A stretch of DNA of 61,173 bases from Asticcacaulis sp. Lineage in GTDB: Bacteria; Pseudomonadota; Alphaproteobacteria; Caulobacterales; Caulobacteraceae. Under the pieces are notes generated by a model. It had not been told where the DNA came from, ran no database searches, and saw only the letters and a program-made list of their open reading frames with translations. Both the position numbers and the translations under genes were made by a program. The stretch covers positions 1-61,173 of the forward strand of contig NZ_JAIXSV010000327.1 of the NCBI RefSeq assembly GCF_027484505.1, given 5' to 3'. Shown here one piece after another: positions 377 through 58,404 of the stretch (position 1 is its first letter; the number at the start of each line of letters is the position of its first letter).

Positions 377-1831
377 CTACCGCTTCACGTCGATGATCAC
401 CCGCTTATAGCGCGTCAGGGCCGGCGTGCCTTTGTCCGTCACGGCCACGATGACGTGCAGGGTGCCGGTGCGGAAGACGCTGTTTTTCGGGATGGTCAGG
501 CTTATTTTGGGCTGATCGGCATTGGCGATGGTCGCCATGCGGCCATTGCGCCCGTTTGAGGTCGTAAAGCCGCCGGCTTCACCATAGACAAACCACTCAA
601 AGCTCAGCGCGTCCTTATCGGGGTCGGTGGAACCCTCGGCGCTGAGTGCCAGCGTATCGCCCAGCCGCGCCGTTAAACGATCCGGATGCGACAGCTTGGG
701 CTCTGGCGGGTGATTGGCCTCGGCATAGGGCTTGATCGTCCAGTCCATGCGTGCGGCAAAGTCGTTCTGATAGGCCTGACGCCAGCGCCAGATGGTCGCG
801 TGATTATCGGTGTGCCAGTTGCCATCGACCCCCAGCACCTCATCCTCGGCATTGGTCCACAGGGGCCGCGTTTCCGGGATCAGGTGCCAGCGGGCGGGCG
901 GAGGGGTGTAGAACTCATAGCGACCGCCCCAACTGCCCCAGTCGGGGTGTTCGGGCGCGCCCAGACCGTTATTGATCAGGTACAGGAAGCTGGGGGTATC
1001 GCCTTCCATCAGGTAGATGGGTTTCGGGTATTCGGCCCCCAGCGGCCCTTTGCTCATAATGTGGGTTTGCAGCCACGGCCCATCGACCAGACTGAAATCC
1101 GCCCCGACAAAACGCCCGTGAAAACGGTCGCCGCTGATGCCTGACCAGGTGGCGTGGTGATAGGCGCCGCCGTCGTGCATACCGGGGCTGGCGATATAAA
1201 AGAGGTCCGGAAAGGTTTGACGCAGCCACGGGCCGGAATCGTCCTGATCCGAGATGGTATAGACGCGCAGCTTGGCCACAAAGCGCTTCAGTTCGGCCTT
1301 GCTCCGCGTGGCGCGCACCTTATGCAGGGCCTGAGCCAGCGTGTTGGGCCCGCCCCAGACCAGCACCCACAGGGGGCGCCCATCGCGGCGATCCACCGCC
1401 CGGATCAGTTGCTCAGCCCCCGGCGAGGTCAGGCCCTTCCCCACGGCTGTCAGGCCGTAGGCCTGTGGGCCTTCGCTGACCACGGACAGCAGGTGTTCGG
1501 CGGACGGATAGCCGGGCTCATGGCGGTTGAGGTTTGGCTGTACCTGCCCATAGGCGCGCACGATCTGACGGATACGCTCCGGGGCCGTATGATGGCGCAT
1601 ATGGATGGAGGTCGTGGCGACCAGCCCCTCTATATCCCACTGATTGGCATAGGTCAGGAACCGCACCAGAGACTCCGCGTCATCCGGTTCATTCTCGATG
1701 TCGGTCAGGACGAAGACGCGCGGCTTTTCTGCCGGGGCCGTTGCGGCTTTGGCGACCGGCTCTGCGGCCTGCGCCAGCGGGCTTCCCCACACCATCAGAC
1801 ACAGGGCCGCAGCCCATCCGTGCAGTCTCAT
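377..1831 (-). CDS. Secreted DUF1593 (nucleoside-hydrolase-like, Sde182-type) protein
   Basis: The protein is about 484 residues, with a signal peptide ([16 protein letters not shown]..., cleavage near AQA-AE). The mature N-terminus carries the DUF1593 signature [20 protein letters not shown], an Asp-rich motif like the metal site of nucleoside hydrolases. A C-terminal Ig/cadherin-like segment (near [17 protein letters not shown]) follows. Family members are found with plant polysaccharide-degradation genes and some are annotated as cellulose-binding; the substrate is not known. Two starts are possible. The ATG at 1831 has GAGACGG/AAGGG in front at usable spacing, while the ATG at 1840 directly abuts AAAGGG, so 1831 was chosen. 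Neighbours give no pathway clue. Confidence 0.85.
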
Positions 1832-1894
1832 CCGTCTCATCCCTTTATTCTTGGCCCGGCACTGTGGTGGGCCACGGGAGGAGCGTCAACCGAA

Positions 1895-2755
1895 TTAATC
1901 CCGCAGCAGTTCGTTGATGCCGGTCTTTGAGCGCGTCTGGGCATCGACGCGTTTGACAATGACGGCGCAGTAGAGGTGCGGGGCGTTCGGGTTCTTGTCA
2001 TTGGCCGAGGGCATGGAGCCCGCCACGACCACCGAATAGGGCGGGACTTCGCCATAGAAGACTTCGCCGGTGGCGCGATCAACGATGCGCGTTGATTGCC
2101 CCAGATAGACGCCCATGCCCAGCACCGAGCCTTCACGCACGATGACGCCTTCGACCACTTCGGAGCGCGCGCCTATGAAGCAGTTGTCTTCGATAATGGT
2201 CGGGTTGGCCTGAAGCGGTTCAAGCACGCCGCCGATACCGACGCCGCCCGACAGGTGCACGTGCTTGCCGATCTGGGCGCAGGAGCCGACCGTCGCCCAG
2301 GTATCGACCATGGTGCCTTCGCCGACATAGGCGCCGATGTTCACGAACGACGGCATCAGCACGACATTCTTGCCCACAAACGCACCATGACGCACAATGG
2401 CGCCCGGCACCGAGCGGAAGCCGGCGTCCTGATAGTCTTCGGCCTTCCACTTGGCGAACTTGTTGGGCACCTTGTCCCAGAAGGGACCGATGGGGGCCTC
2501 TTCAAACAGGCCGCGACCCGTGTGCATCAGGTGGTTGCCATTGAGGCGGAAGGAGAGCAGCACGGCTTTCTTCAGCCACTGATGCGTAACCCATTCGCCG
2601 TCGATCTTTTCAGCGACGCGGAAGCGGCCGTTGTCGATCAGGCCCAGCGCCTTCTCCACCGCATCGCGCACCGGACCGGTGGTGGACGGCGACAGGGTGT
2701 CGCGGATTTCCCAGGCGGCTTCGATATCGTCGTGGAAGGCGGCGAGGTCGGACAT
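1895..2755 (-). CDS. dapD: 2,3,4,5-tetrahydropyridine-2,6-dicarboxylate N-succinyltransferase
   Basis: DapD transfers succinyl from succinyl-CoA to tetrahydrodipicolinate in the succinylase branch of lysine and diaminopimelate synthesis, in the cytoplasm. The N-terminal helical domain is followed by a left-handed beta-helix of hexapeptide repeats (region [20 protein letters not shown] through [16 protein letters not shown]). The motif [20 protein letters not shown] is typical of DapD. The frame extends upstream to a TTG at 2779, but the ATG at 2755 has GAGAG five bases ahead and gives the normal length of 286 residues. The gene stands alone here; dapE and dapC are not in the window. Confidence 0.95.
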
Positions 2756-2855
2756 GGCGGCTCTCATAAGGTCTGTCAAAGAAGGAATGACAGGGCCTTA
2801 AGACCTATGATCCTTCGGATCAAGGTTTCTTTTTTTGCTCGCGCTCAGGCGCTGT

Positions 2856-3659
2856 TTATTGAGAGCGTTTGATCACATACGCCTCTGTGGCCAGTTCGTG
2901 TTTGAGCATAAACGCCGACAGGCTCTCATAGGTGGCGGTGCGGATTGGGCCGGGATGATCGTCGGTGCGCAGGCGCGCATCGGCCATCGGCCCCAGCGTG
3001 CGTTGCAGGAAGCCGGCTCTGACGGTGGTCGGTTCAAACCAGCGCGTCAGATTGGCCTTGATCTGCGGGTAGGAGTCCGTCTCCCACGCTGCCGCTGCGA
3101 CGACATCCAGCACAAATTCCACGCAGTTCTGGTATTTCGCATCCAGCGGATTGGATACCAGCGAATAGTCGGTGACGTGCAGGCGCGCATAGGCGGGCGT
3201 GCCGATCAATGTCCGCAGCCGCCGCTGCATTTCCGGCGTCGGGAGGATGACTCCGACATCGTCTTCGGCGGAGATGCTGGCGAAGTTCAGCGGGAAGTCC
3301 TGCTTCAGGTAGGACTGGCTGACCGGCACGGTCTTTCCGTCGCCATGATAGAGATTATAGACCGCATAGCCCTGAAGATGGCGTCCGTCGGCGGTGGTGA
3401 TGTCGCTGTGGACCCAGAAGGCCCCGTGCGTATAGGCGATGCCGGGCGGCAGCTTGTCATGCGGACGGCTGGTGCGAAAGACAATGGCCACTCGCGCGCC
3501 TTTGGCCGCCAGATTTTGCTCGATCTGTTTGGCGAAGGCGGCGGCTTCGGGCGGGCTGAAATGCGGTTTGGTGTTGGCGGCACTGTCGCCGGATTCGTTG
3601 CCCGCCCACGCACCGGTGGGAAGGAGCAGGGATACGGCCAGCAGGGCCGCCCGCCACAT
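2856..3659 (-). CDS. DUF2145 family exported protein
   Basis: The protein is 267 residues with a signal peptide (MWRAALLAVSLLLPTGAWA). The body matches the DUF2145 family: a region around KGARVAIVFRTSRPHDKLP, the block FWVHSDITTADGR and a conserved QNCVEFVLDVVAAA segment. Function is unknown; family members are predicted periplasmic proteins of Proteobacteria. The start is the ATG at 3659, one base after the stop of the upstream small secreted gene, so the two are almost certainly translated from one mRNA. A longer frame to 3704 would overlap that gene and would bury the signal peptide behind a basic tail. Confidence 0.8.
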   Translation of the reverse strand: MWRAALLAVSLLLPTGAWAGNESGDSAANTKPHFSPPEAAAFAKQIEQNLAAKGARVAIVFRTSRPHDKLPPGIAYTHGAFWVHSDITTADGRHLQGYAVYNLYHGDGKTVPVSQSYLKQDFPLNFASISAEDDVGVILPTPEMQRRLRTLIGTPAYARLHVTDYSLVSNPLDAKYQNCVEFVLDVVAAAAWETDSYPQIKANLTRWFEPTTVRAGFLQRTLGPMADARLRTDDHPGPIRTATYESLSAFMLKHELATEAYVIKRSQ

Positions 3660-19323: not shown

Positions 19324-20286
19324 ATGCCGGTTAATCTTGATAAGCCACATCTATGGAAAGCCGATATATTGCAGTCGGTTGACATGTATAATTCATGGTT
19401 TATGAAATTCGCGCCAGATGCATTTCGTGAAACTCGGTTACGTGTGACAGACAGTGTCACAGAAGCTCTTAAGATAACGCATTATTTAAGAGACATTGAA
19501 CCTGAGACTTTGCGTCGCCACCCGGAAATTCTGCCCAGTCTTCGTATGTCAACCTGTCCGCCAATTGCAGTTGACAGGTTGATCGGGTTATCTGGCGTCT
19601 CTCCTGGCTTCGTCAAGTGTATGGAGCAAGACAAGCGCATACCGTTACGGATGGCGTTTGACCATGCAAATGCTCAGTTGGAAAAGATTGCGATAACAAT
19701 CCGGCGAATGATTGACCCGGATATTTTTGTCTGGCTACAACGTAAACAAAACCCAACTGAAGTCGAAATATACCGTGCCGCCACCATCGTAGCCGACCGG
19801 CTCTGTAGTGCCGTGGCGAACCCAATTATCCGCAATGCTCAGGAAAAACGACAATTAGCGGCTATCAAGTCCTGGCTGGAGATGAGAGGCTACACCCAGC
19901 TTGCAGAAGGTGCACAAGTCAAATTTAACCAGATGCAGCCCGGTACTTTCAGTTTTCGTATGAATGTCCCAACTACTCACGAAGACGGGAGTAAATCAGT
20001 TAATATTCCGGTTGATGCGGTAATAATGCCTCTCTCCCGTGTTGCAGGGCAATTGCCTGTGTTTATCGAGGCGAAGTCAGCGGGCGATTTCACCAATACG
20101 AACAAACGCCGTAAAGAAGAAGCTGCTAAAATGCATCAGCTCCGTTCTACCTATGGGGCGGATGTTCAATTCAATCTCTTTTTATGTGGTTATTTTGACA
20201 GCGGCTATCTGGGCTACGAAGCCGCCGAAGGCATAGACTGGGTTTGGGAACATAGGATCGATGACTTGGAGAAATTCGGACTGTGA
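19324..20286 (+). CDS. XamI-family type II restriction endonuclease
   Basis: This 320-residue protein matches the XamI endonuclease family, whose founding member cuts GTCGAC (a SalI isoschizomer). A PD-(D/E)xK-type site is visible: Asp231 in IPVDAVIM, then Glu249 and Lys251 in VFIEAKSAGD. The N-terminal half includes PDAFRETRLRVTDSVTEALK and the family block LIGLSGVSPGFVKCME. AGGA precedes the ATG at six bases. Its stop overlaps the methylase start (GTGA), so nuclease and methylase are made from one mRNA. Codon use is AT-rich, unlike flanking genes, pointing to horizontal transfer. The exact target here is inferred, not proven. Confidence 0.87.
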   Translation: MPVNLDKPHLWKADILQSVDMYNSWFMKFAPDAFRETRLRVTDSVTEALKITHYLRDIEPETLRRHPEILPSLRMSTCPPIAVDRLIGLSGVSPGFVKCMEQDKRIPLRMAFDHANAQLEKIAITIRRMIDPDIFVWLQRKQNPTEVEIYRAATIVADRLCSAVANPIIRNAQEKRQLAAIKSWLEMRGYTQLAEGAQVKFNQMQPGTFSFRMNVPTTHEDGSKSVNIPVDAVIMPLSRVAGQLPVFIEAKSAGDFTNTNKRRKEEAAKMHQLRSTYGADVQFNLFLCGYFDSGYLGYEAAEGIDWVWEHRIDDLEKFGL

Positions 20287-21809
20287 ATCCGCGCGTTACA
20301 ATTTCTCACGAACAAAAACGTCTTATTTTGCAAGAAGACTTGGATGCTGCAAAAAGCCGAGGCGAGCGTAATAAGCTGGGCCAGTTTGCGACCCCCGGAA
20401 CACTTGCAAATCAGATTATAACTCACGCGGGCGTTCTCTTGGGTGAGACCGAGGATATCCGTTTTCTTGACCCTGCCATTGGGACTGGATCATTTTATTC
20501 GGCCCTGCGCTCTCTCTATCCAAATGCTCGTATCTCGGCTGCCCGTGGCTATGAGATAGATCGACATTACGCCGAGTCGGCAATCTGTCTATGGAGGGGG
20601 ACGAATCTCGAATTACGGCTTGCAGACTTCACCAAAGAAAAGCCTGAACCGTGCTTCAATATGCTGATTTGTAATCCACCCTACGTTCGGCATCATCACA
20701 TTGCTAATGAAGACAAAATCCGGCTTCGATTGACGGCACACGAAATCTCAGGGGTAAATCTCAGTGGTCTTTCGGGGCTGTATTGTTACTTTATCGCTTT
20801 GGCTCACGGATGGATGAGCGATGAAGGTGTCGCTGGGTGGTTGGTTCCCAGTGAATTTATGGATGTAAATTATGGAAAAGCGATCAAACAGTATCTTTTG
20901 ACTCAGGTCACTTTGTTACAAATTCATCGCTTCGATCCTCGCGATGTGCAGTTTGCAGATGCTTTAGTTTCGTCTTCTGTGGTTTGGTTCCGAAAGGCGC
21001 CCCCTCCACCGGGCCATAATGTGAAATTTACATATGGTGGTACATTTGCAGAACCAACGACTTCGCGCCTCGTTTCCATTGATGCTTTAGCACAGGAGTC
21101 TAAATGGACACGCTTTCCCGTTCACGAGAGGCGTAGTCCTAATACAAGAGGCATTGTTTCCGATTTTTTTAAAATCAAACGGGGGATTGCTACGGGGGAC
21201 AATGACTTTTTCATATTGCCCGAAGAAGAAATTGAGCGCCGAGGATTGCCGCTTGAATTGTTCCGTCCCATATTGCCGAGTCCAAGATACGTAAAATCAG
21301 ATGAGGTTGAATCTGATCCCGAAGGAGTGCCGTGTTTAGAGAAACGCTTATTCTTGCTCGACTCCAAGCTTGCTGAGTCTGAGATAGAGCGTCGTTTTCC
21401 TGAACTCTATACGTACCTTCAAGAAGGCCGTGCCAAGGGGTTGCATGAGCGGTATTTATGCCGGCATCGAAGCCTTTGGTATGCGCAGGAAGCTAGGCCA
21501 CCCGCACCTGTTGTTTGCACTTATCTAGGGCGTGCAGATACCAAAAATGGGCGTCCTTTCCGATTCATATTGAACAAGTCGAAAGCGACGATAGCAAATG
21601 TGTATCTTGCAATGTATCCTACGGCTCTGACGGAAAAGGCGATGCAGGCCGATCCAACCTTTGTACGGCGAGCTTGGGAAGCTTTGAATCGGATAAACCC
21701 CGATCAGCTTTTAAGCGAAGGACGCGTTTACGGCGGCGGGCTTCATAAGCTGGAGCCGAAAGAGCTTGCAAACGTACCTGTTCCAGAATTGATGGAATTA
21801 CTCCCTTAA
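20283..21809 (+). CDS. DNA adenine-N6 methyltransferase of the XamI-type system
   Basis: This 508-residue class I SAM methyltransferase protects the host against the preceding endonuclease. Motif I is FLDPAIGTGSFY (about residues 61-72) and motif IV is NPPY (131-134) in LICNPPYVRHHH, the order of gamma-type N6-adenine enzymes of the Eco57I-like family. The C-terminal half is the target-recognition part (KIKRGIATGDNDFFILPEEE is a common block in this family). It starts with GTG overlapping the nuclease TGA. The expected product is N6-methyladenine in GTCGAC if specificity matches XamI. Confidence 0.88.
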   Translation: MNPRVTISHEQKRLILQEDLDAAKSRGERNKLGQFATPGTLANQIITHAGVLLGETEDIRFLDPAIGTGSFYSALRSLYPNARISAARGYEIDRHYAESAICLWRGTNLELRLADFTKEKPEPCFNMLICNPPYVRHHHIANEDKIRLRLTAHEISGVNLSGLSGLYCYFIALAHGWMSDEGVAGWLVPSEFMDVNYGKAIKQYLLTQVTLLQIHRFDPRDVQFADALVSSSVVWFRKAPPPPGHNVKFTYGGTFAEPTTSRLVSIDALAQESKWTRFPVHERRSPNTRGIVSDFFKIKRGIATGDNDFFILPEEEIERRGLPLELFRPILPSPRYVKSDEVESDPEGVPCLEKRLFLLDSKLAESEIERRFPELYTYLQEGRAKGLHERYLCRHRSLWYAQEARPPAPVVCTYLGRADTKNGRPFRFILNKSKATIANVYLAMYPTALTEKAMQADPTFVRRAWEALNRINPDQLLSEGRVYGGGLHKLEPKELANVPVPELMELLP

Positions 21810-53860: not shown

Positions 53861-54565
53861 ATGGAAGCCGCCCACGCCGCCGAGTCCCTCAGCTTTATCG
53901 CCCTGTTCCTGCGGGCCGACTGGGTTGTGAAGGGCGTCATGCTTCTTCTGGCACTCGGTTCGCTGTGGTCATGGGCCATCATCATCGAAAAGGGCTTCAA
54001 GCTGGCCAAGCTGAATAAGGAAGCCGCCGGTTTCGAAGCCGAACTGGCGGCCGGGCGCGCCCTCGAAGACATCGCGGCCAAGCACGGCACGCAGCCGACC
54101 GCGCCCTTTCCCAAACTGCTTGTGACGGTGACTTCGGCCTGGGGCGAATATAAGGGCAAGAGCATTTCCGCCCCCGAAGGCGAGCTTCTGTTGTCGCGCG
54201 TCGATCGCGAACTGAACCACGTCATTTCGACCGAGGCCGACGCCATGGAAGACGGCCTGAGCCTGCTGGCCGTCGTTGCTACGGCTGCGCCGTTTATCGG
54301 CCTGTTCGGTACGGTGTGGGGCATCATGAACGCCTTTTCGGCCATCGCGTCGCAGGGCGACACCAATCTGGCCACCGTCGCCCCGGCTATTTCCGAAGCC
54401 CTGTTTGCCACGGCCATCGGTCTGGGCGCGGCCATTCCGGCCTATATCTTCTTCAACCTCTACAATGCCAAGGTGGCGCGCTTCGTCGGCCGCCTCGAAG
54501 GCTTTGCCGATGAGCTGATGGTGTCGGTCACCGGTCGCCTCGGCGGCAAGCTGGCTGGTCGCTGA
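53861..54565 (+). CDS. tolQ: Tol-Pal system proton channel subunit TolQ
   Basis: TolQ is 234 residues with three transmembrane helices: about 20-42 (VVKGVMLLLALGSLWSWAII) and two in the second half (LLAVVATAAPFIGLFGTVWG, ISEALFATAIGLGAAIPAYI), with the conserved proline and Thr of the channel. With TolR it uses the proton motive force to energise TolA, which links the membranes during cell constriction. AGGAG lies before the ATG at 53861; the frame from 53843 is longer but unsupported. tolR follows after 13 bases. Confidence 0.95.
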   Translation: MEAAHAAESLSFIALFLRADWVVKGVMLLLALGSLWSWAIIIEKGFKLAKLNKEAAGFEAELAAGRALEDIAAKHGTQPTAPFPKLLVTVTSAWGEYKGKSISAPEGELLLSRVDRELNHVISTEADAMEDGLSLLAVVATAAPFIGLFGTVWGIMNAFSAIASQGDTNLATVAPAISEALFATAIGLGAAIPAYIFFNLYNAKVARFVGRLEGFADELMVSVTGRLGGKLAGR

Positions 54566-54578
54566 GAGGGGTACGCAC

Positions 54579-55061
54579 ATGGCAATGGGTAATGCAGGCA
54601 CAGGCGGCGGACGCCGGCGCGGCAGGCGGCGGGCGCGTCGCGGCGCGCTGGCGGAAATCAACGTAACGCCGATGGTCGATGTCATGCTGGTGCTGCTGAT
54701 CATCTTCATGATCTCGGCCCCGCTTCTGACGTCGGGCATCAAGATCGAACTGCCCAAGACCGAGGCGGCAGCGCTTAAGGACGAGGGTGATCCGATCACC
54801 GTCTCCATCCAGCGTGACGGCGCGCTGTATGTCATGGACGATGCGGCCACGTTTGAACAACTGACGCCGCGCCTGATGGCCATGACCGATAACGACACCT
54901 CCAAGCCTATCTATGTGCGCGCCGAAGGGGCCGCGCCCTATGAGACCGTGGCCAAGGTGATGGCGCGCCTGTCCACCTCTGGCTTCACCAAGATCAACCT
55001 TCTCACCGAAAATCTCGGCAAGACGCAAAAACCGGCGACGGCCGGGGAGGCGGCACCGTAA
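54579..55061 (+). CDS. tolR: Tol-Pal system protein TolR
   Basis: TolR is 160 residues. A short basic cytoplasmic tail (GGRRRGRRRARRGALAEINV) is followed by one transmembrane helix with the essential Asp (PMVDVMLVLLIIFMISAPLL) and a periplasmic domain (about 50-150: KIELPKTEAAALKDEGDPIT, SKPIYVRAEGAAPYETVAKV). It forms the stator/channel with TolQ and binds peptidoglycan. GAGGGG precedes the ATG. Its stop is two bases before the tolA start. Confidence 0.95.
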   Translation: MAMGNAGTGGGRRRGRRRARRGALAEINVTPMVDVMLVLLIIFMISAPLLTSGIKIELPKTEAAALKDEGDPITVSIQRDGALYVMDDAATFEQLTPRLMAMTDNDTSKPIYVRAEGAAPYETVAKVMARLSTSGFTKINLLTENLGKTQKPATAGEAAP

Positions 55062-55063
55062 CC

Positions 55064-55870
55064 ATGAAGATGGGTCGCGCCCTTATCGGTTCGCTTCTCC
55101 TGCACGCGGGTGTGCTGGCGCTTGCCTTCCTCAACTGGAACACCCTGCCGGACGCCAAGCCGGTGGTGTCGGTGCCGGTGCAGATTGTGGCCGAGCTACC
55201 CGAACGCTCGATGGCCGCCGCACCGGTCGATGAGCAGGCCGTGCTGGAGCCGGTACCTGAGCCCGCACCAGCGGAACCTGTGCCGACCCCTGAGCCGGAA
55301 CCGGTCCCCACACCGCCCGCGCCGAAACAACCGGTGCCGGAGGTGAAGAAAGAAACCAAAAAGCCTGAGCCCAAAAAGCTGGAGCCCGTCAAACCGGCCA
55401 AGACCAAGCCGGACCCCAAGGGCACGCAGAAGCCGAAGCCTCAGACGCTCGATCTGGGCGCGCTCAGCCAGTATCAGTCCTCACCGCCCAAGTCCAATAC
55501 GCGCACCCCGGCGCGACCAACGCGCACGCCTACCGACGGGTCATCAGCTCGCGGCAGTGCGGCGGCGGATACTGGCCCGGCCCTGAACGCTCTGACGGCC
55601 AAGCTGCAACGCCTGTGGTCGCCTAACTGCGATGTGCCCGGCGGCAATCAGGTACGCGCCGTCATCGCCTTCACCATTTCGCCCAATGGTCGCGTGATCA
55701 AGGGGCCGGAGTGGCAAAATCCGCGCAATGATCCGGTCTGGCAGGCGGCCGCCGGTCGTGCGCAGGCGGCGGTCAAGAAGGGCGAGCTGTACGACAATCT
55801 GCCCGACGGACTTTATAACCAACCTCTGGAAATCACCTTCAACGCGCAGAAGGCTTGCGCAGGTGCATGA
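55064..55870 (+). CDS. tolA: Tol-Pal system protein TolA
   Basis: TolA is 268 residues, shorter than E. coli TolA (421). The N-terminal helix (ALIGSLLLHAGVLALAFLNW) docks to TolQR. The Pro/Glu/Lys-rich stalk (about 40-165: PEPAPAEPVPTPEPEPVPTP, KKETKKPEPKKLEPVKPAKT) replaces the long helix of enterics. Domain III (about 170-268) has VIAFTISPNGRVIKGPEWQN and LYNQPLEITFNAQKACAGA with two cysteines. It contacts TolB and Pal in the periplasm. Its TGA overlaps the ATG of a second, free-standing copy of domain III. Confidence 0.92.
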   Translation: MKMGRALIGSLLLHAGVLALAFLNWNTLPDAKPVVSVPVQIVAELPERSMAAAPVDEQAVLEPVPEPAPAEPVPTPEPEPVPTPPAPKQPVPEVKKETKKPEPKKLEPVKPAKTKPDPKGTQKPKPQTLDLGALSQYQSSPPKSNTRTPARPTRTPTDGSSARGSAAADTGPALNALTAKLQRLWSPNCDVPGGNQVRAVIAFTISPNGRVIKGPEWQNPRNDPVWQAAAGRAQAAVKKGELYDNLPDGLYNQPLEITFNAQKACAGA

Positions 55871-56244
55871 GGACGTGGGTCATTACCATGAGCGCGGCAT
55901 TGCTGACCGGACTGTTTCTGACAACGCCGGTGCAGGCTGAATCTCTGGGGCAAGGATTAACGCGTCTTGTCGGAAAAATTCAGCGCAATTGGAAGCCTGA
56001 TTGTAAGAGACCTGGCGTAGCAGAGGTCAATATAGTGTTAAAATTCACACTGGCTCCAAACGGCCATGTAAGTGAAGGTCCTGAGTGGGTTAAGCCGAGG
56101 GTTGAGCCTGTTTGGGTAGATGTTGCTGAGTCTGCCTTGGCAGCCTTTAAACAAGGCGAGCCTTACACAGATTTGCCGCAAGGCCTGTACAATGTACCTA
56201 TAGAAGTCAGTTTCAATGCGCATAGGGCGTGCGCCCGTGATTAA
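55867..56244 (+). CDS. Secreted free-standing TolA domain III paralogue
   Basis: This 125-residue protein has a signal peptide (RTWVITMSAALLTGLFLTTP, ending VQA-ES) followed by one TolA C-terminal domain: IQRNWKPDC, VLKFTLAPNGHVSEGPEW, VEPVWVDVAESALAAFKQGE and LPQGLYNVPIEVSFNAHRAC. By eye, about 47 of 88 aligned residues match TolA residues 174-265, and both cysteines are kept. It has no transmembrane anchor or stalk. Its ATG overlaps the tolA stop (ATGA), and tolB starts 20 bases after its stop. The mature part is AT-richer than its neighbours, with rare codons such as TTA, ATA and AGA. It may compete with or tune TolA binding to TolB/Pal. Function is inferred. Confidence 0.85.
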   Translation: MRTWVITMSAALLTGLFLTTPVQAESLGQGLTRLVGKIQRNWKPDCKRPGVAEVNIVLKFTLAPNGHVSEGPEWVKPRVEPVWVDVAESALAAFKQGEPYTDLPQGLYNVPIEVSFNAHRACARD

Positions 56245-56264
56245 ACCTGAAGAGGTAGCGAACC

Positions 56265-57575
56265 ATGCGATCCTTTAAAACATTTTCTGTCCTTATAGGC
56301 GCCTTTCTGGCTCTGGCGGGTGCGCCGCTGGCCGCCTTTGCGCAGGCCCCGATCCGCGCCGAGGTCAATGAGGGCGTGATCGCGCCCCTGCCCATCGCCA
56401 TTGACATCGAATCGAGCGGTTCCGATCTGGGCGACAAGATCACCAAGGTGGTCATGGCTGACCTTGAGCGGTCGGGCTTTTTCAAGCCCATCGACCCCAA
56501 TGCCTTTATCGAACAAAGCGTCGGCATCGACGCCACACCGACCTTCGCCAGCTGGAAGACTATCAATGCGCAGGCCCTCGCCAATGGCGTAGCGCGCGTC
56601 GATGGCGAAGGCCGTCTTCAGGTCGATTTCCGCCTGTGGGACGTCTTTTCGGAAAAGCAGCTTCTGGGGCAGTCGGTAACAGCGACGCCCGAAAACTGGC
56701 GTCGCATTGCGCACAAGATCGCCGACGCCATCTATGAAAAGCTGACCGGTGAAGAGGGGTATTTCGACACCCGCATCGTCTTCGTGGCCGAAAGCGGGGC
56801 GCGCGGCAAGCGCGTCAAGCGTCTGGCCATCATGGATCAGGACGGTGCCAATCCCTCCTATCTGACAGACGGCTCATATAAGGTCATGACGCCGCGCTTT
56901 TCGGCCGACTCGCAGGAAGTGGCCTATATGGTGCTGCGCGAAGACTCGGCGCGCATCTATGTTTTTAATATCGAAACGGGCCGTCAGGAGGCCGTGGGCC
57001 AGATCAAGGGCATGGTCTTCGCGCCACGCTTTTCGCCCGACGGTAGCAAGCTGGCCTATTCGGTGGCGCAGGGCGGCAATACCGACATCTATGTGATGGA
57101 CCTGCGCACGCGTGCCACGCGCCGCGTGACGACCGATCCGGGCATCGATACCTCGCCGTCCTTCTCGCCGGACGGTTCGACCATCGTATTCAACTCCGAC
57201 CGGGGCGGGTCACCGCAACTCTATGCCATGAATGCCGACGGTTCGGGTGTGCGCCGCATTTCGTTTGGCGGCGGCATCTATTCGACGCCGGTGTTCAGCC
57301 CCAAGGGCGACAAGATCGCCTTCACCAAGCAATCGGGTGGGCGGTTCTCCATCGGCGTGATGGATGCCGGTGGCGGCAATGAAAAGCTGCTGACCTCATC
57401 CTTCCTCGAAGAAGGCCCGACCTGGGCCCCCAATGGCCGCTATATCATGTTCTTCCGCGAACCGCCGGGTGCGCTGCCGTCGCTGTGGATGGTGGAGGCG
57501 TCGGGGCGGATCGAGCGTCAGGTGCCCTATTCGGGCGGGGCGTCGGACCCGGCGTGGTCGCCCCGACTCAAATAG
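56265..57575 (+). CDS. tolB: Tol-Pal system periplasmic protein TolB
   Basis: TolB is 436 residues with a signal peptide ([20 protein letters not shown], ending AFA-QAP). The N-terminal domain (about 28-165) ends in a helix before a six-bladed beta-propeller with the repeating motif [51 protein letters not shown] and [11 protein letters not shown]. The residues after the signal ([12 protein letters not shown]) correspond to the TolA box that switches between TolA and Pal binding. It is cotranscribed with the upstream tol genes; a 274-base gap follows before pal. Confidence 0.95.
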
Positions 57576-57849: not shown

Positions 57850-58404
57850 ATGACCAAGTCTGTATTCAAACTCGCTCTGCTGGCCTGCGCCACGCTTTCC
57901 GTGGCCGCCTGCGCCGGTAAGAAGCCGGAAGTCGTGACGCCCCCGCCGGCCGTTGTCGAGCAGCCGACCCCGGCACCGGCCTACACGCCCCCGCCGGCCG
58001 CGGAAACCAAGCCGTTGTCGCCGACCGGTCCGGTTCCGGGTTCGCAGCAGGACTTCGTCGTCAATGTCGGCGACCGCGTGTTCTTCGATCTGGATCAGTC
58101 GTCGGTGCGTGAAGACGCCAAGGCTCTGCTCGACAAGCAAGCCGCGTGGCTGGTTCGCTATCCGGCCGTGAAGGTCCGTATCGAAGGCAATGCCGACGAA
58201 CGCGGCACCCGTGAATACAACTTCGCTCTGGGCGCACGTCGCGCCGAGTCGGTGTCGCAGTACCTGACCTCGAAGGGCGTGGTGCCGTCGCGTATCTCGA
58301 CCATCTCCTACGGTAAAGAAAACCCGATCGCTACGGGCGCTGACGAGGAAGCCTGGTCGCAAAACCGTAACGCCCACACCGCCATCACCGAAGGCGCGCA
58401 ATAA
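57850..58404 (+). CDS. pal: Peptidoglycan-associated lipoprotein Pal
   Basis: Pal is 184 residues: lipoprotein signal with a VAAC lipobox, a Pro/Ala-rich linker (TPPPAVVEQPTPAPAYTPPP) and an OmpA-like domain (about 75-184): VFFDLDQSSVREDAKALLDK, RIEGNADERGTREYNFALGA, RRAESVSQYLTSKG and SYGKENPIATG. It is anchored in the outer membrane, binds peptidoglycan and TolB, and is gathered at division sites by TolA cycling. AAGGGG precedes the ATG at 57850. A strong terminator follows. Confidence 0.96.
   Translation: MTKSVFKLALLACATLSVAACAGKKPEVVTPPPAVVEQPTPAPAYTPPPAAETKPLSPTGPVPGSQQDFVVNVGDRVFFDLDQSSVREDAKALLDKQAAWLVRYPAVKVRIEGNADERGTREYNFALGARRAESVSQYLTSKGVVPSRISTISYGKENPIATGADEEAWSQNRNAHTAITEGAQ

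What the first reader, a model, noticed from the sequence alone, without database searches (positions are those of the whole stretch)
55867..56244. A free-standing, secreted copy of TolA domain III encoded inside the Tol-Pal operon
The gene after tolA encodes only a signal peptide and one TolA C-terminal domain, with no membrane helix and no stalk. About half of the 88 aligned residues match TolA domain III by eye, including both cysteines and the GPEW and GLYN motifs. The ATGA overlap with tolA implies matched synthesis. It is known in E. coli that domain III is the part that binds TolB, Pal, colicins and filamentous phage, and that free periplasmic domain III disturbs Tol function. A native version could be a regulator of Tol-Pal cycling, an adaptor for another partner, or a decoy against phage or bacteriocins.
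Basis: partly seen in the sequence, partly recalled or inferred. Interest (0 to 1): 0.78.

Follow-up and report, generated by a model that had tools for sequence, protein, structure and literature searches.

The report
Secreted TolA tip beside tolA
A bacterium carries, next to the gene for the cell-envelope motor arm TolA, a second gene for only the arm's grasping tip, apparently set free in the periplasm; separate lineages seem to have made the same thing more than once, which suggests a natural way of tuning or protecting the Tol-Pal envelope machine.

Summary
Window 55867-56244 encodes a 125-residue protein: a likely signal peptide plus one TolA domain III (dIII), 51% identical to the neighbouring TolA over 100 residues. 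It overlaps tolA by ATGA and lies 20 bp before tolB. The mature part models as dIII (pLDDT 92; Foldseek hits TolAIII/TonB-CTD). No orthologue is evident in the other 24 genus genomes. Composition and a mosaic junction suggest import by recombination.

The wider finding: dIII-only genes between tolA and tolB recur. Of 390 family genomes, 5 have intact and 3 broken copies, and a single origin is rejected (p-AU 8e-8; long branches). In a distant alphaproteobacterial genus (Minwuia/IMCC3096), 5 of 7 genomes carry one, under purifying selection (dN/dS 0.16-0.28); two look like lipoproteins.

Most likely function, untested: an uncoupled TolA tip competing for TolB and tuning Tol-Pal. Rivals: phage/bacteriocin decoy; transient duplicate (remnants show that copies do decay). 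Six searches of open papers found no description.

The parts
55867..56244 (+). free-standing secreted TolA domain III gene (X), 125 aa
55867..55938 (+). signal peptide coding part (residues 1-24, predicted cut after VQA); GC3 0.75, like the neighbouring genes (24 codons only)
   Evidence: no second copy in the own genome
55939..56241 (+). domain III coding part (residues 25-125); GC3 0.43, below all 166 overlapping windows of ten neighbouring genes (lowest 0.69)
56002..56004 (+). first conserved cysteine codon (Cys46)
56230..56232 (+). second conserved cysteine codon (Cys122)
55867..55870 (+). ATGA overlap of the X start codon with the tolA stop codon
55064..55870 (+). tolA (268 aa); its domain III is the paralogue of X
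56245..56310 (+). X-tolB spacer and first codons of tolB, G089-like in an otherwise G042/G104-like operon (approximate right part of the inferred recombination tract)
56265..57575 (+). tolB (proposed partner)
57850..58404 (+). pal
53861..54565 (+). tolQ
54579..55061 (+). tolR

Best explanation
X is a TolA paralogue reduced to the ligand-binding tip: a signal peptide sends one TolA domain III into the periplasm without the TolQR-coupled anchor or the stalk. It most likely works as an uncoupled competitor. It can take the N-terminal peptide of Pal-free TolB by beta-strand augmentation, as TolA does, but cannot pull, so it tunes how much TolB the energised TolA engages and hence how fast Pal is released and how tight the envelope is. 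Translation coupled to tolA (ATGA) would keep its dose proportional to TolA. Shown: the gene, the domain homology and modelled fold, the operon position, recurrence of such genes at this position, and purifying selection on the Minwuia versions. Supported but inferred: more than one origin, and import of X by recombination. Inferred only: secretion, binding to TolB, and the regulatory effect.
For: Domain identity 51/100 with the neighbouring TolA, all seven family-invariant residues kept. Fold: AF2 pLDDT 92.3, pTM 0.82; the ten best Foldseek PDB hits are TolAIII or TonB/HasB C-terminal domains, with 6s3w (TolAIII bound to a TolB peptide) at rank 7 (best E 2.2e-3, none below 0.001, query TM 0.43-0.58). 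Recurrence: of 390 family genomes, 5 intact and 3 broken dIII-only copies, all 8 between tolA and tolB. One origin for six copies of the family rejected, p-AU 7.8e-8. G260's copy also starts with an ATGA overlap. A probably separate case in Minwuia/IMCC3096 (33% to its own TolA, 21% to X; not tested on a tree): 5 of 7 genus genomes, dN/dS 0.16-0.28 in the 9 of 10 pairs with finite dS, fold again TolAIII. TolA-TolB mechanism: PMC7391070 and PMC8928145 (passages). Secreted TolAIII in E. coli promotes release of periplasmic protein: PMC6195910 (passages).
Against: No binding, localisation or expression data. X has no known orthologue, so selection on X now cannot be measured. X dIII has an atypical GC3 and X is in only 1 of 25 genus genomes. 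Related copies are truncated or frameshifted in G052, G124 and G201. The signal peptides are judged by simple rules; three of the other family copies (G073, G202, G260) have no net positive charge in their first ten residues, and the G202 start (GTG) was chosen by me. The published TolAIII-TolB affinity is weak (Kd about 40-200 uM), so competition needs a high dose. The presumed TolB-binding strand beta3 matches own TolA at 4/7 in G000, G085 and G202 and 7/7 in G073, but only 1/7 in G260 and 1/7-2/7 in Minwuia.
Confidence: 0.42

Rival explanations
1. Decoy or immunity: free domain III soaks up phage or bacteriocin proteins that need TolA domain III, so the attacker loses its periplasmic receptor.
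For: Domain III is the docking site for filamentous phage g3p and colicin A (PMC7391070 passages; PMC4339652, title and start of abstract). Patchy, recurrent, fast-diverging copies (long branches) and import of X by recombination look like an arms-race gene.
Against: No defence-family match in PADLOC for 5 copies tested. Retention with purifying selection in Minwuia fits housekeeping as well. No phage or bacteriocin of this host is known here.
Confidence: 0.2
2. Transient duplicate: tandem partial duplications of tolA arise often, are expressed from the operon for a while and then decay; X is one that was picked up by recombination and has little function.
For: Remnants in G052 and G124, frameshift in G201; X in 1 of 25 genus genomes; low GC3 of the domain.
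Against: The intact copies all have a hydrophobic export-like N-terminus in frame, which duplication of the 3' end alone does not give. X keeps an open frame and all seven invariant residues at 51% identity (0.25% in a neutral simulation). Minwuia copies are under purifying selection; in the three copies of genus g3 dN/dS is 0.26-0.40 (one of them is the frameshifted G201 piece).
Confidence: 0.22
3. Adaptor for another partner: the domain has left TolB and binds a different periplasmic or outer-membrane protein, perhaps at the outer membrane in the lipoprotein forms.
For: Minwuia extras diverge faster than TolA domain III (dN/dS 0.16-0.28 against 0.00-0.15). Two of five Minwuia copies have a lipobox. 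G510 has a secreted-looking domain III outside the tol operon.
Against: All 8 family copies and the three Minwuia-genus copies read in context lie between tolA and tolB, which points to Tol partners.
Confidence: 0.14

Closest known systems
TolA domain III (TolAIII) of TolA
   Same: Homologous domain, modelled fold, cysteine pair, GPEW and GLYN motifs, tol operon location
   Different: No inner-membrane anchor with the S-x3-H motif, no stalk; carries its own signal peptide, or a lipobox in two Minwuia copies
Engineered periplasmic TolAIII (ribose-binding-protein signal fused to E. coli TolAIII), used to release periplasmic products
   Same: Same architecture: signal peptide plus domain III; passages in PMC6195910
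   Different: Artificial and overexpressed; here native, in the operon, dose unknown
TonB C-terminal domain proteins (TonB_2, PF13103)
   Same: Same fold; 8 of 32 members of alignment A3 match TonB_2 weakly, best E 0.0049
   Different: X itself gives no Pfam match; tol operon context, and the closest homologue is TolA
CpoB/YbgF and Pal (accessory and core periplasmic Tol-Pal proteins)
   Same: Exported proteins encoded in the tol operon
   Different: Unrelated folds (recalled; read of in passages), not compared here

Membership tests
TolA (full force transducer) | C-terminal domain III homologous to TolA | tested here: met
   51/100 identity; fold
TolA (full force transducer) | N-terminal anchor helix with SHLS-type motif for TolQR | tested here: not met
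   Sequence 55867-55938: hydrophobic stretch ends in VQA, no histidine; neighbouring TolA has SLLLH
TolA (full force transducer) | Periplasm-spanning stalk (domain II) | tested here: not met
   Domain III homology starts at residue 24, at the predicted signal-peptide cut
TolA domain III | Alpha-beta-beta-alpha-beta fold with short C-terminal helix | tested here: met
   H4-17 E31-38 E44-51 H57-73 E87-93 H94-98; predicted model, not solved
TolA domain III | Binds the TolB N-terminus by beta-strand augmentation | not testable with these tools
   No complex modelling or binding assay available
Secreted (Sec) protein | Signal peptide | tested here: inconclusive
   Hydropathy and -3,-1 rule only; no trained predictor run
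Known anti-phage defence proteins | Match to PADLOC model | tested here: not met
   0 families for 5 copies including X
Phage-encoded protein | Match in phage records, viral contigs or PHROGs | tested here: not met
   No match for X; the Minwuia-genus G782 copy has one weak PHROG match, a tail terminator family, E 0.0027 over residues 29-87, not followed up

The most novel reading that the evidence does not exclude
Separate alphaproteobacterial lineages repeatedly turn a copy of the TolA tip into a free periplasmic or lipid-anchored protein, made from the same operon position, as a built-in brake on the Tol-Pal machine (or a shield for it): a natural counterpart of the secreted TolAIII constructs that laboratories use to make cells leak.
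Probability: 0.4. Interest if true: 0.78.

Novelty: new variant of a known kind. Interest (0 to 1): 0.6.

Why it matters
Tol-Pal is usually treated as a fixed machine with typically a single TolA (PMC12204202, passage). A tip-only TolA in the same operon would be a dose-matched competitor that evolution has apparently built more than once. It would give a natural handle on how TolB hand-over, Pal release and envelope tightness are set, and on how cells may protect the domain that phages and colicins use. The version in the complete genome of IMCC3096 (CP018227) would let this be tested with ordinary genetics if that strain can be grown and transformed.

Tried and rejected
Recent duplication of the neighbouring tolA: rejected, because TolA in the four nearest relatives is 92-98% identical to the window TolA while X is only 51%. 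X as a member of the clade of its own TolA is borderline (p-AU 0.0508); X with the G085 copy as one clade is not rejected (p 0.32). The G085 copy moved between the two trees: beside G085's own TolA (93/75), elsewhere with weak support.

Signal peptide derived from the TolA anchor helix: not supported. Own-pair scores exceed shuffles only weakly in G085 (0.03) and not in the five others (0.10-0.90). The stalk-remnant test was negative in both cases tried, G073 and G085.

Donor of X: no closer relative than the genus's own TolA among 385 class genomes, of which 6 (own included) had a match at 1e-4; two weak plasmid hits only (E 0.2 and 0.8); none in phages or viral contigs; the signal-peptide DNA has no second copy in the own genome.

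Second dIII matches set aside: G283 (one domain III split by an insertion) and the second match of G067 (an unrelated 419-aa reading frame). Second matches of G071, G436, G464, G876 and G897 were not examined beyond contig and open-frame length (266-625 aa, not short). G534's two TolA-length copies were looked at only in part.

Census limits: the profile held X and the G085 and G073 copies among its rows. The search scores only a limited number of candidates per genome and did not list the Minwuia-genus copies of G668 and G874 at class level. All prevalence counts are lower bounds.

Full report
What is there. Window 55867-56244 (+) is a 125-residue reading frame between tolA (55064-55870) and tolB (56265-57575), in a tolQ-tolR-tolA-X-tolB-pal operon (family models). 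Its ATG overlaps the tolA stop as ATGA and its stop lies 20 bp before tolB. Residues 24-123 align without gaps to the C-terminal domain of the neighbouring TolA, 51/100 identical, with both cysteines and the GPEW and GLYN motifs. Residues 1-24 look like a signal peptide (simple rules only). There is no stalk and no TolQR-type anchor motif. The mature part was modelled by AlphaFold2 at mean pLDDT 92.3, pTM 0.82, from a 12-row alignment. Foldseek's ten best PDB matches are TolAIII, TonB or HasB C-terminal domains, with modest scores (best E 2.2e-3, query TM 0.43-0.58).

Where X came from. Among 25 genomes of the genus only this one has X; one other, G085, has a different second copy, 34% identical to X, and two (G052, G124) have remnants like that one. 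The four nearest relatives (TolA 92-98%, TolB 94-98% identical) have a plain 13-19 bp tolA-tolB spacer with no remnant. X is therefore not a recent copy of its neighbour: TolA hardly differs between these species, while X differs from it at half the positions. Two signs point to import. First, the domain III part of X has third-position GC 0.43, against a median of 0.77 and a lowest value of 0.69 in 166 overlapping windows of ten neighbouring genes, while its 24-codon signal-peptide part has 0.75. Low values are not unique in the window: a restriction-modification pair at 19324-21809 has 0.44-0.47. Second, both flanks place G000 with G042 and G104, with G099 outside at support 1.000 on both sides, but the spacer and first codons of tolB group it with the more distant G089 at support 0.993. 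That local alignment has only 131-143 bases for the nearest relatives, and over its whole length G000 is still more like G042 (80.1%) than G089 (77.1%), because only its start is G089-like. I read this as replacement of the tolA-tolB junction by recombination with an unsampled relative that carried X. No closer relative of X than the genus's own TolA was found among 385 class genomes.

It is not alone. A profile of 30 domain III sequences, X and the G085 and G073 copies among them, found two matches in 9 of 390 genomes of the family. One (G283) is a single domain split by an insertion. The other eight all lie between tolA and tolB. Five are intact and begin with a hydrophobic export-like segment: X, G085, G073, G202 and G260; the signals of G073, G202 and G260 are weak by the charge rule. 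G201's copy is frameshifted in a 75%-complete assembly. G052 and G124 keep only about the last 45 residues of the domain. G260's copy also overlaps tolA by ATGA and appears to share a loop insertion with G260's own TolA. Holding six copies (the five intact ones and the G201 piece) together as one clade is rejected (p-AU 7.8e-8). The best tree needs four changes and well-supported branches force at least three; the rows have long branches, and the G085 copy moved between trees. The three copies of genus g3 form one group with support 91/78. Whether X and the G085 copy share one origin is open (p 0.32).

A conserved case. At class level (337 genomes) G782 showed a second match beside tolA. Its two sampled congeners, G874 and G668, proved to have one too when the neighbourhood was read. 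A search of the whole family of G782 found the extra protein in 5 of 9 genomes, all in one genus (5 of 7). The named records are Kordiimonadales bacterium IMCC3096 (complete genome CP018227) and Minwuia or uncultured alphaproteobacterial MAGs (lineages). Pairwise dN/dS of the extra protein is 0.16-0.28 in the 9 of 10 pairs with finite dS, against 0.00-0.15 for TolA domain III of the same genomes, so it is kept by selection but evolves faster. For the three g3 copies the values are 0.26-0.40, against 0.04-0.52 for their TolA. Three copies of the Minwuia genus have an ordinary signal peptide (one by rules, two by eye); two (G924, G668) have a LAGC lipobox. The G782 protein models as domain III (pLDDT 83.5), with TolAIII structures as the three best PDB hits. 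It is closer to its own TolA (33%) than to X (21%), so it probably arose separately; I did not test this on a tree. The signal-peptide copies read as soluble and the lipobox copies as lipid-anchored, both inferred. Another secreted-looking domain III (G510) lies outside the tol operon.

How it may work. TolA takes TolB by beta-strand augmentation of domain III with the TolB N-terminus, at weak affinity (Kd about 40-200 uM), and in the proposed mechanism uses the proton motive force to free Pal from TolB (PMC7391070 and PMC8928145, passages seen). [quoted passage not shown] Without anchor or stalk it cannot pull. The simplest mechanism is competition: X parks free TolB and tunes Tol-Pal cycling, with a dose tied to TolA by operon position and start-stop overlap. 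This is inferred. Secreted TolAIII has been used in the laboratory to make E. coli release periplasmic protein (PMC6195910, passages; there some release also occurred without it at strong expression), which suggests that the architecture can act on the envelope when overproduced. A decoy for phages or bacteriocins is the best functional rival, because g3p and colicin A use the same domain (PMC7391070 passages; PMC4339652, title and start of abstract). A transient duplicate is the sober rival: copies do decay, and X sits in a single sampled genome. Against it stand the in-frame export-like N-termini, the neutral simulation (5.4% without a stop, 0.25% keeping seven invariant residues) and the Minwuia conservation. 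Part of the divergence of X may have accumulated while its ancestor was an ordinary TolA, so the simulation does not prove that X is functional now. No element, including the presumed TolB-binding strand, is strongly conserved between extras and their TolA in all lineages, which leaves a changed partner possible.

Novelty. The domain and the fold are known. I found no description of native secreted or lipoprotein TolA domain III proteins in six full-text searches of open PMC papers, where I saw listings and read passages of six papers (PMC12204202, PMC8928145, PMC7391070, PMC6195910, PMC4339652, PMC3477136); closed journals and preprints were not searched. A 2025 survey of TolA evolution says species typically have a single tolA (PMC12204202, passage). 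I therefore call it a new variant of a known kind.

Noticed in passing
window 19324-21809 (+): Two low-GC genes (GC3 0.47 and 0.44) encode a XamI restriction endonuclease (PF09572, E 5e-123) and an Eco57I-type methylase: probably an acquired restriction-modification pair.
   Followed up: partly
L041 (G078) 411-1096 (-): Two small genes that read by eye like a VapBC toxin-antitoxin pair sit between tolA and tolB in another genus of the family, so this junction takes other insertions too.
   Followed up: no
L108 (G510) 1774-2325 (+): A secreted-looking TolA domain III-like protein outside the tol operon in another family of the order.
   Followed up: partly
L048 (G129), tolA domain III: G129 TolB is 94% and Pal 97% identical to the window's, but its TolA domain III groups with G137/G029: domain III may be swapped by recombination between species.
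   Followed up: no
L084 (G283) around genome C78:5318-5713: One genome of another genus has an insertion in the middle of TolA domain III that splits the profile match in two.
   Followed up: no
L105 (G782) 2536-2916 (+): The extra domain III of the Minwuia genus has a weak match to a PHROG tail-terminator family (phrog_6485, E 0.0027), probably chance.
   Followed up: no
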